From Meridianimarinicoccus sp. MJW13 (lineage in GTDB: Bacteria; Pseudomonadota; Alphaproteobacteria; Rhodobacterales; Rhodobacteraceae), in assembly GCF_014901205.1 (NCBI RefSeq), contig NZ_JACNMU010000005.1, positions 124,001 to 188,000 of the forward strand: DNA of 64,000 nucleotides. The letters run 5' to 3'. Positions within the stretch are counted from its first letter, which is position 1. Each line of letters opens with the position of its first letter. The translations under genes were made by a program, and so were the position numbers. Positions 12,538-14,051 of this stretch are shown in pieces. The notes under the pieces are model-generated. The model was not told where the DNA came from and searched no databases. It worked only from the letters and a program-made list of their open reading frames with translations.

Positions 12538-12600
12538 ATGTCAGTGCCTTGGCGCAACCTGTTGCCGTTGGATGACAGTGAGGCTTTCCCGACTGGAAAT

Positions 12601-12665
12601 CTTAACGGTAACCATTAGTCTAAATTGACATTGATTTTGTAATTATATTACTCTGTAATTATTGA
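12601..12665 (+). promoter_or_regulatory. AT-rich promoter-like island before the microprotein genes
   Basis: This stretch is strongly AT-rich in an otherwise GC-rich window. TTGACA at 12625-12630 is a perfect -35 element, with TTACTC or TACTCT at 17-18 nt as weak -10 candidates. TGTAATTAT occurs twice as a direct repeat, at 12638-12646 and 12654-12662, 16 bp apart, overlapping the likely -10 region. This layout suits an activator or repressor that binds direct half-sites. The first microprotein gene starts 30 bp beyond the island. Confidence 0.5.
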
Positions 12666-12694
12666 ATGGGACAAAAGGATCAAGGAAGGTTCCA

Positions 12695-12805
12695 ATGCCA
12701 ACGCCCGTCACACAGCCTGACCCGCAACGACCGACAACTTCGCAGGCACCCTCTGCGCCCGTGCAAAACCCGCCGGTTCAATTTCGTGACTGGGCGTCAA
12801 TCTGA
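12695..12805 (+). CDS. 36-residue microprotein A, DWAxI C-terminus
   Basis: I do not recognise a family. The frame runs from ATG to TGA with AGGAAGG 5 nt upstream of the ATG. The N-terminal 28 residues are rich in Pro, Thr and Gln (it begins MPTPVTQPDPQ). The end is VQFRDWASI. The second microprotein, 136 bp downstream, ends FVFTDWAMI: Phe, Asp, Trp, Ala and Ile are shared at equal distance from the stop. The shared Phe and Ala use different codons (TTT/TTC and GCG/GCC). No signal peptide or membrane segment is seen. The motif suggests a short C-terminal docking or recognition tail; this is inference. Confidence 0.6.
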   Translation: MPTPVTQPDPQRPTTSQAPSAPVQNPPVQFRDWASI

Positions 12806-12860
12806 ACCTTTTTCGCCCCGTGCCCCTTGGAGTGGCGTCTGCTCTGCTTATCTCAGGCGC

Positions 12861-12890
12861 GGCCTGACCCGAGGCCGGGGAACATCCCCG
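12861..12890 (+). other. Two small hairpins between the microprotein genes
   Basis: GGCCT (12861-12865) pairs with AGGCC (12872-12876). CGGGGA (12876-12881) pairs with TCCCCG (12885-12890) over a 3-nt loop. No T run follows, so this is not a standard terminator; it could stabilise the mRNA or mark a processing site. Confidence 0.4.
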
Positions 12891-12941
12891 CGTCGTCGGC
12901 GTTGAGGCTTCAGTGACCGTGAGTGATCGAAAGGACACGAC

Positions 12942-13043
12942 ATGAAAAAGACAGCCGCGCCGACCCGCCCGACCCCTGCGCAGAAACCCGGCCAGGAAAG
13001 CCGGCGCCCCGGTTTTGTCTTCACCGACTGGGCCATGATCTGA
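12942..13043 (+). CDS. 33-residue microprotein B, DWAxI C-terminus
   Basis: The frame runs from ATG to TGA with AAAGGAC 7 nt before the ATG. The N-terminus is basic and Pro/Thr-rich (MKKTAAPTRPTPAQKPG). The end is GFVFTDWAMI, matching microprotein A at five of the last seven residues. Sequence after both stops is also alike (both enter a TTT-containing pyrimidine run), so the two genes may come from an old tandem duplication that diverged except for the tail. A TfoX C-terminal-domain gene starts 53 nt downstream on the same strand and may be in the same transcript. The function is unknown. Confidence 0.6.
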   Translation: MKKTAAPTRPTPAQKPGQESRRPGFVFTDWAMI

Positions 13044-13096
13044 CCCTTTCCCTTGTGGGCGCGTCCGGGCTATGCCCTGCGTAAAAGGACGCGCTC

Positions 13097-13474
13097 ATGC
13101 CCACCCCGATTGACCAGATCCGCAATCTTGGTCCGGCCATGGCCGAGGCTTTTGCCAAGGTGGGCATCCAGTCCGCCGAGGACCTGCATGAACTGGGCCC
13201 AGACGCCGCCTATGGCCGTCTGCTGGCCCAGGGCCACCGCCCCCATTTCATTGCCTATTATGCCATGGTGATGGGCCTGCAGGGCCGCCCGTGGAACGAT
13301 TGCCAGGGCGCCGAGAAAACCGCCCTGCGCGCGCGATTCGACGCCTTGAAAGCGGCGGCCAGCGCGCCCCCCGCACAGCAAAAGGGCCACGCCCGGATGG
13401 ACGCGGCCCTTGCCGAAATCGGGGTGATCAGGCGGACCGATCAGCCGACCAGTTCAAGACCCGAGAAGAAATAG
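13097..13474 (+). CDS. Stand-alone TfoX/Sxy C-terminal-domain protein
   Basis: The 125-residue protein matches the helix-hairpin-helix-like C-terminal domain of TfoX/Sxy. [17 protein letters not shown], then [18 protein letters not shown] and an aromatic [13 protein letters not shown] follow the order expected for that domain. The N-terminal TfoX domain is absent. In gamma-proteobacteria full TfoX activates competence with CRP; single C-domain proteins are common in alphaproteobacteria and have no settled role. AAAGGACG precedes the ATG. It begins MPTPIDQ, echoing MPTPVTQ of microprotein A. Its 3' end overlaps the convergent ndk by 34 bp. Confidence 0.8.
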
Positions 13475-13863
13475 GCGATTTCCTCGGCCGCGGTTTCCGG
13501 CGCGTCGGAACCGTGGACCGAGTTCTCGCCGACCGATTCCGCGAATTCGGCGCGGATGGTGCCGGGGGCGGCATCGGCGGGGTTGGTGGCGCCCATGACT
13601 TCGCGGTTCTTGGCAATGGCGCTTTCCCCTTCCAGCACCTGCACGACCACCGGCTCGGAGGCCATGAACTCGCACAGTTCGTCATAGAACGGGCGTTCGG
13701 CGTGTACCGAATAGAACTGGCCGGCCTGCGCCTTGGTCAGGTGAATGCGCTTCTGCGCGACGATGCGCAGGCCCGCGTCTTCGAACTTGGCGTTGATCTT
13801 GCCGGTCAGGTTGCGCTTGGTGGCATCGGGTTTGATGATCGACAGGGTGCGTTCGGTCGCCAT
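13441..13863 (-). CDS. ndk: Nucleoside diphosphate kinase
   Basis: Ndk moves the gamma phosphate between nucleoside triphosphates and diphosphates in the cytoplasm through a phosphohistidine. The 140-residue product begins [18 protein letters not shown], the family N-terminus, and holds the active-site histidine in [18 protein letters not shown] lies upstream of ATG 13863; the 32 further open codons upstream are not part of the family. It converges on the TfoX_C gene with overlapping 3' ends. Confidence 0.97.
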
Positions 13864-14051
13864 GTTGGAAAATCCTTCAGAAGATTGGATCGTGCCGGAC
13901 GCCGTGTCCGGACGAAATCGCGCGTCTGCTAACACGCGCGCGGGCGGTTGAAAAGTCACCTGTTGTGATGGCGACGGCGGGCTTTCATTGTGCGGTCGGA
14001 TTCCGGGCCGGAGCAGAGTTTGGGCCAGAGTCCGCCGGAACCGCCGAGTGT

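What the first reader, a model, noticed from the sequence alone, without database searches (positions are those of the whole stretch)
12695..13043. Pair of 36- and 33-residue proteins sharing an F-x-D-W-A-x-I tail
Two tiny frames with good ribosome sites end in VQFRDWASI and FVFTDWAMI. Phe, Asp, Trp, Ala and Ile are shared at the same distance from the stop, while the rest differs. Shared Phe and Ala codons differ only at the third base, which points to selection on the peptide. Both have Pro/Thr-rich N-terminal parts and similar sequence after the stop, as from an old tandem duplication. I know of no described family. A short conserved tail suggests a docking, inhibitor or degradation signal for a shared partner.
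Basis: seen in the sequence. Interest (0 to 1): 0.72.

Follow-up and report, generated by a model that had tools for sequence, protein, structure and literature searches.

The report
Small proteins with one shared tail
Two overlooked tiny bacterial genes belong to a family of short, probably floppy proteins, seen so far only in the Rhodobacter–Roseobacter group, whose last seven residues stay nearly unchanged while the rest drifts, which suggests that the tail is gripped by a still unknown partner.

Summary
Two genes (12695-12805, 36 aa; 12942-13043, 33 aa) end in F-x-D-W-A-x-I-stop; the pattern hits the window twice and none of 100 shuffles. It marks a real small-protein family: a third copy elsewhere in the genome, all 7 sampled genomes of the genus, 102 of 394 family genomes with one reversed-control match. 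Of 127 matches read in context, 125 are short frames, mostly Pro/Gln-rich. None of 285 other-family Alphaproteobacteria has it with a real stop.
A search blind to D, A, I and F found the tail upstream of TfoX_C in 17 of 30 loci, widening it to [FILY]xDWAxI-stop. It is not simply a tfoX leader: 15 of 96 tail genomes lack a TfoX_C match, and 26 of 53 loci away from TfoX_C are followed by a convergent gene. Best reading: disordered tethers presenting a C-terminal docking motif in trans. The partner is unknown; CheR is excluded for this genome, TfoX_C unsupported. No match above cut-off in Pfam or NCBIfam, none convincing in PHROGs, none in PDB. The claimed post-stop similarity is not supported.

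The parts
12695..12805 (+). small ORF A, 36 aa, Pro/Thr/Gln-rich, C-terminal VQFRDWASI-stop
   Evidence: pattern; first copy of the pair in G001 (L018) has the F, R, D and A codons of FRDWA changed only synonymously
12782..12805 (+). tail F-x-D-W-A-x-I-stop of ORF A
12942..13043 (+). small ORF B, 33 aa, Pro/Thr/Lys-rich, C-terminal FVFTDWAMI-stop
   Evidence: last 30 nucleotides identical in the second copy of G001
13020..13043 (+). tail F-x-D-W-A-x-I-stop of ORF B
12600..12680 (+). upstream region of ORF A holding GGTAACCATT and TTTTGTAATTATATTA, shared with TfoX-locus copies of the genus; probable promoter or operator (inferred)
   Evidence: seen (L002, L006, L008, L010, L013; partial variants in L009 and L014); GGTAACCA in 7 of 69 TfoX-locus upstream regions against 0.1 expected; no sigma-70 consensus found
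13097..13474 (+). TfoX_C-domain gene, recurrent downstream neighbour of the family but not always present
   Evidence: Pfam PF04994 E=4.1e-17; synteny
13441..13869 (-). ndk (nucleoside diphosphate kinase), convergent, marks the locus in relatives including some that lack TfoX_C
   Evidence: Pfam PF00334 E=1.6e-54

Best explanation
ORFs A and B are members of a real, apparently unnamed family of small cytosolic proteins found so far only in Rhodobacteraceae-type Alphaproteobacteria. Each is a probably disordered Pro/Gln/Ala/Thr-rich tether (whole protein 19-117 aa, median 42) ending in a fixed C-terminal peptide, roughly [V/F/Y/P]-[R/I/V]-[F, or I/L/Y]-[T/R/K/S/D]-D-W-A-[S/M/A]-I-COOH. The tail is most likely a C-terminal short linear motif that docks, free carboxylate included, into a pocket of a shared partner; the alternating pattern would fit a beta-strand added to a sheet. 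The proteins act in trans, as competitor, recruiter or inhibitor of that partner, and paralogues differ in where and when they are made rather than in the tail. Shown: family, tail, taxonomic limit as sampled, several loci, persistence without tfoX. Inferred: translation in vivo, disorder, docking, action in trans. Unknown: the partner.
For: Tail with stop: 102 of 394 family genomes match, one match of the reversed control (of the 102, two are TGG, two are chance frames, four were not read). An earlier set gave 10 of 41 with two control matches. Of 127 matches read, 125 are short frames; 124 have a callable start, 122 ATG, with at least 4 bases of AAGGAGGT upstream in 112 and 3 in 12 (starts were chosen partly by that site). 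Body composition P 18.6%, Q 13.0%, W 0.2%. Protein-level conservation: F TTC91/TTT33, D GAC84/GAT40, A GCC66/GCG48/GCT5/GCA5, stops TGA94/TAA19/TAG11. Less biased test: 17 of the 30 best TfoX_C loci have a frame ending DWAxI-stop upstream, in a listing that asked only for a W in the last 8 residues. Trans action: three copies at two places in this genome; 13 of 74 and 2 of 22 tail genomes have no TfoX_C match; in 26 of 53 loci away from TfoX_C the next called gene is convergent. AlphaFold2 gives no secondary structure, pTM 0.14.
Against: No partner was found. No expression, ribosome-profiling or peptide data were available. Distribution is patchy inside the family (about a quarter of genomes by the strict pattern), so the function is dispensable or the tail diverges beyond the pattern. 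Over half of the copies sit just upstream of TfoX_C (69 of 127), and 16 of the 53 other loci have a same-strand gene within 150 bp, which leaves room for cis roles. In the blind test 13 of 30 TfoX_C loci have no such frame. Mean pLDDT was 73, not the very low value that disorder usually gives.
Confidence: 0.55

Rival explanations
1. Regulatory leader peptide: the nascent tail stalls the ribosome at the stop codon and controls translation or transcription of tfoX_C downstream.
For: 69 of 127 copies lie <400 bp upstream of TfoX_C. In the window the 44 bases 13055-13098 can fold into a hairpin that reaches the tfoX ribosome site (fold of L030, z -1.6). A terminator-like GGCCAGCC/GGCTGGCC hairpin or near variant stands between the two genes in eight loci (L050, L052, L055, L070, L103, L115, L121, L138). 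The tail is conserved right up to the stop.
Against: 15 of 96 tail genomes have no TfoX_C match, in five of them with the small gene kept directly beside ndk (L037, L053, L076, L123, L127). In 26 of 53 loci elsewhere the next called gene is convergent. Folding between the genes is only slightly stronger than resampled sequence and the ribosome site is mostly paired in half of the loci (mean z -0.8, 60 loci). All three stop codons and all four following bases are used.
Confidence: 0.13
2. C-terminal degradation or chaperone signal: the tail is recognised by a protease or its adaptor and the protein is a competitor or timing element.
For: A fixed free C-terminus on a disordered body is what C-terminal degrons look like (established knowledge); several copies in trans.
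Against: Known alphaproteobacterial ClpXP tags end in small residues such as Ala-Ala (recalled), not W-A-x-I; nothing here tests it.
Confidence: 0.13
3. Docking tail for TfoX_C itself, a two-gene competence-like module.
For: Synteny; TfoX_C is somewhat commoner in genomes with the tail (81 of 96 against 56 of 78, Fisher p 0.06; the two groups were searched in part with different queries).
Against: Tail kept in 15 of 96 genomes without a TfoX_C match, one of them (G174) with three copies; no TfoX_C column separates 12 tail-free from 75 tail-bearing loci better than permuted labels (best 0.55, permutation mean 0.61).
Confidence: 0.1
4. Precursor peptide whose conserved C-terminal residues are modified or released (as in PqqA or mycofactocin precursors, recalled).
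For: Short variable body with fixed C-terminal residues.
Against: I saw no maturation gene among the recurrent neighbours (22 largest clusters shown, names by eye); several paralogues per genome.
Confidence: 0.04

Closest known systems
C-terminal tip of single-stranded DNA-binding protein (SSB-Ct, recalled)
   Same: Pro/Gln/Gly-rich disordered tether ending in a short acidic-hydrophobic peptide read together with its free carboxylate
   Different: No OB domain, one Asp rather than several, Trp and terminal Ile instead of I-P-F; here the tail stands alone as a protein
CheR/CheB-docking pentapeptide xWxxF-COOH of chemoreceptors (recalled)
   Same: Trp four residues from a hydrophobic C-terminus, on a flexible linker
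   Different: Terminal Ile, conserved D and F outside or within the pentapeptide, no receptor; the window's genome has no CheR match
Nascent-chain leader peptides that stall at a stop codon, such as TnaC (recalled)
   Same: Tiny frame with Trp and Asp, conserved up to the stop, often upstream of one gene
   Different: Downstream gene missing or convergent in many copies
DUF1127 small proteins of Alphaproteobacteria (PMC12501420, search listing with start of abstract only)
   Same: Often under 50 aa, alphaproteobacterial, several copies per genome, reported to act by protein-protein contact
   Different: No sequence relation: none of 34 aligned members nor 6 further ones matched any Pfam model at E up to 1

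Membership tests
Any Pfam, NCBIfam, PHROGs family | profile match above cut-off | tested here: not met
   Pfam: 0 families for 34 aligned members and 6 others. NCBIfam: one sub-threshold match, E 0.24, 11.7 bits against cut-off 35, for ORF B only. PHROGs: best E 0.033 among 34 members, four families without function. PADLOC not searched.
CheR-docking pentapeptide | host has CheR | tested here: not met
   Window genome 0 CheR; 15 of 25 chosen tail genomes and 18 of 25 chosen tail-free genomes have it
CheR-docking pentapeptide | terminal Phe, xWxxF | tested here: not met
   terminal Ile in both window proteins; in the listing, which left the last residue free, no frame ended in DWAx plus another residue
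tfoX leader peptide | a downstream target gene always in cis | tested here: not met
tfoX leader peptide | conserved alternative RNA structure between leader and gene | tested here: inconclusive
   mean z -0.8 in 60 loci, terminator-like hairpin only in a subset
tfoX leader peptide | ribosome stalling at the stop | not testable with these tools
   needs toeprinting or ribosome profiling
C-terminal degron | tail shortens half-life through a named protease | not testable with these tools
   needs a protein turnover assay
C-terminal docking motif (works like) | fixed C-terminal residues on a variable, disordered tether | tested here: met
   disorder itself is only suggested: AlphaFold2 pTM 0.14, no secondary structure, mean pLDDT 73
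C-terminal docking motif (works like) | bound partner | not testable with these tools
   no partner known

The most novel reading that the evidence does not exclude
Rhodobacteraceae-type bacteria run a private C-terminal peptide code: one hub protein with a pocket for F-x-D-W-A-x-I-COOH, served by several tail-only small proteins made from different loci that compete for or recruit it under different conditions.
Probability: 0.35. Interest if true: 0.8.

Novelty: new variant of a known kind. Interest (0 to 1): 0.62.

Why it matters
A family this small carries almost no alignable sequence outside about seven residues, so the profile libraries tried here miss it. Yet it sits in about a quarter of sampled family genomes, with up to three strict copies each. 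The fixed tail is a ready-made bait: a synthetic peptide and its W-to-A control could name the partner in one pull-down, and the partner would be a regulated hub of a major marine and photosynthetic bacterial group. It also shows that a very short fixed C-terminus together with its stop can be a usable search handle for hidden small-protein families.

Tried and rejected
CheR/CheB docking: considered because DWASI resembles xWxxF; rejected because the window genome and 9 of the 24 other tail genomes tested have no CheR (25 tail genomes chosen out of about a hundred; Fisher p 0.55 against 25 tail-free genomes).

TfoX_C as partner: no covarying position, tail kept without TfoX_C.

Leader peptide with conserved RNA structure: not shared across 60 loci. 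No Rfam family reached its gathering score anywhere in the window.

A universal upstream DNA motif: none found; CGGAGCAG in 12 of 69 TfoX-locus copies and GGTAACCA in 7 of 69 are in subsets only. No sigma-70 consensus promoter between fabI and tfoX.

A fourth copy in the window's genome: a relaxed pattern gave a DWPSI frame on contig C18; it lies out of frame within a 372-aa frame and is taken as chance.

Tandem duplication by similarity after the stops: not supported.

Relaxed search without the Phe: 75 of 129 family genomes matched, with many control matches and TGG ends, so it was used only to point to variant tails, not for counts.

Solved structures: no match to the family profile at E up to 10. 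Viral link: PHROGs only weak.

Literature, listings only and capped: TfoX with Rhodobacter and small protein (1 paper); the letters DWASI anywhere (105 papers, 15 seen, none relevant by title); small proteins with Rhodobacter sphaeroides and ribosome profiling (240 papers, 15 seen); TfoX and roseobacter terms (651 papers, 20 seen, none of these 20 holding TfoX); TfoX with Rhodobacteraceae (1 paper); conserved small proteins with motif terms (3 papers); small ORFs with Rhodobacter or Roseobacter (26 papers, 8 seen). None of those seen appeared to describe this family; unseen rows, supplements and subscription papers could. In PMC3305630 (Ruegeria pomeroyi proteogenomics) I saw passages only; TfoX does not occur in its main text.

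Full report
What was checked. The two frames are exactly as described: ORF A 12695-12805 (36 aa, VQFRDWASI-stop) and ORF B 12942-13043 (33 aa, FVFTDWAMI-stop), both on the + strand between fabI and a TfoX_C-domain gene followed by convergent ndk (fabI named from its Pfam enoyl-ACP reductase match). The degenerate DNA pattern for F-x-D-W-A-x-I-stop occurs twice in the window and never in 100 shuffles.

It is a family. In the window's own 4.0-Mb genome the pattern occurs three times, the reversed control none; the third copy is on another contig. All 7 sampled genomes of the genus have it. Among 41 relatives 10 match, with two control matches. In 394 genomes drawn across the family 102 match, with one control match. 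Of those 102, two (G222, G272) have TGG instead of a stop, two (G363, G370) are chance frames on reading, and four (G276, G379, G408, G256) were not read. I read 127 matches in 122 loci, mostly from that set plus the genus: 125 are short frames and two, L040 and L095, are chance. 124 have a callable start (L111 is cut by a contig end): 122 ATG, 2 GTG, median 42 aa, range 19-117; bodies are rich in Pro, Gln, Ala and Thr. A match of at least four bases to AAGGAGGT precedes 112 starts and three bases precede 12. Starts were chosen partly by that site, so this is not an independent test of translation.

Selection acts on the peptide. Under the fixed residues the codons are mixed: TTC/TTT 91/33, GAC/GAT 84/40, Ala in all four codons, all three stop codons. 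Between ORF A and its counterpart in G001 the F, R, D and A codons of FRDWA all differ and all differences are synonymous. Because the search pattern itself demands the residues, I also tested without it. In the 30 best-scoring TfoX_C loci of the 76 genomes with a match, frames ending in about 420 bases upstream of TfoX_C were listed if they had a Trp in the last 8 residues. Seventeen of 30 loci have one ending D-W-A-x-I-stop, nine with F and eight with I, L or Y in the first position; the other 13 have none, and no frame ended in DWAx with a different last residue. The tail is thus [FILY]-x-D-W-A-x-I-stop. In the strict set, position -2 is S, M or A in 113 of 124 and position -6 is T, R, K, S or D in 109 of 124. 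An alignment of 34 members shows the same (all 34 taken from the strict set).

Where it occurs. In 289 genomes of the class, four belong to the family; none of the other 285 has the tail with a real stop (the three hits there end in TGG). A scan of one genome per species over 84,980 species with the AGC-codon form of the tail gave 62 stretches. Fifty-eight are titled as Rhodobacterales or genera of that order (order checked for Psychromarinibacter and Brevirhabdus; otherwise recalled). One is titled Maritalea mobilis, which the taxonomy puts in Devosiaceae, but it carries the family's TfoX, ndk and ABC-F gene order (L213). Three are others (Holdemania, Bacteroidales, Acidimicrobiaceae) whose frames lack the Pro/Gln-rich body.

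Neighbourhoods. 69 of 127 copies lie within 400 bp upstream of TfoX_C. In six named stretches a Gln-rich copy lies downstream of TfoX_C; five of them (L196, L198, L223, L225, L232) also show a matched copy upstream of it, and L186 only the downstream one. Fourteen of the 55 loci clustered have another ABC-F ATPase gene (EttA-like by recall) on the same strand ending 0.3-3.3 kb upstream. A subfamily starting M-(T)-FCTAH lies elsewhere.

Not simply a leader peptide. Thirteen of 74 tail genomes (11 of the 67 that are at least 90% complete; Pfam profile) and 2 of 22 (protein query) have no TfoX_C match; together 15 of 96. One of these 15, G379, is among the unread. In five (G221, G073, G319, G174, G384) the small gene remains beside ndk, with 70-237 bases between them, no room for TfoX_C (L037, L053, L076, L123, L127). 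Of 53 loci away from TfoX_C, the next gene by my own frame calling is on the opposite strand in 26, on the same strand within 150 bp in 16 and further on in 11; the window genome's own third copy stops 18 bp before a convergent one. RNA between the small gene and TfoX_C is only slightly more folded than resampled sequence (mean z -0.8, 60 loci). Against my reading, the window itself has a hairpin there reaching the tfoX ribosome site, and eight loci have a terminator-like hairpin, so a local cis role at tfoX is not excluded.

Partner. The resemblance of D-W-A-S-I to the chemoreceptor pentapeptide led me to test CheR: absent from the window genome, present in 15 of 25 chosen tail genomes and 18 of 25 without. 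For TfoX_C, no alignment column separates tail-bearing from tail-free loci beyond permutation, and co-occurrence is weak (81 of 96 against 56 of 78, p 0.06). The partner is unknown.

Known families. No Pfam match at E up to 1 for 34 aligned members or 6 others; one NCBIfam match far below cut-off, for ORF B only (E 0.24); no convincing PHROGs match for 34; no PDB match; no Rfam match in the window. AlphaFold2 on ORF B with 34 sequences gives no secondary structure and pTM 0.14; mean pLDDT is 73. Seven capped literature searches showed nothing that appeared to describe it.

Verdict. A real, apparently undescribed small-protein family limited, as far as sampled, to Rhodobacteraceae-type bacteria, best explained as disordered tethers that present a C-terminal docking motif in trans. 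The existence of the family is near certain; the docking mechanism is an inference at about 0.55.

Noticed in passing
L050, L052, L055, L070, L103, L115, L121, L138: A GGCCAGCC-loop-GGCTGGCC hairpin or near variant, mostly followed by T-rich sequence, like an intrinsic terminator, stands between the small gene and TfoX_C; the small proteins at these loci are of the Gln-rich type.
   Followed up: partly
upstream of TfoX-locus copies in other genomes: The 8-mer CGGAGCAG/CTGCTCCG occurs upstream of 12 of 69 TfoX-locus copies against 0.5 expected; its role is unknown.
   Followed up: no
window 12608-12650; L006, L008, L010, L013: GGTAACCATT followed by TTTTGTAATTAnATTA or close variants upstream of the genus's copies, possibly an operator for an unknown regulator.
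   Followed up: partly
L047, L060, L063, L080, L102, L122, L235: A subfamily beginning M-(T)-FCTAH, with a conserved N-terminus as well as the tail; three of them have a GntR-like gene upstream and four an OmpA-like gene (names recalled).
   Followed up: no
window 13055-13098: A long G+C-rich hairpin runs from shortly after the stop of ORF B to the tfoX start and pairs part of its ribosome site (fold of L030, z -1.6).
   Followed up: partly
L028, L029, L087, L116: In some lineages the copy follows an Rrf2/NsrR-like regulator gene (name recalled from sequence), a possible hint to nitric-oxide or iron-sulphur control.
   Followed up: no
window 13441-13474: The TfoX_C gene and ndk overlap tail to tail by 34 bases.
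   Followed up: no
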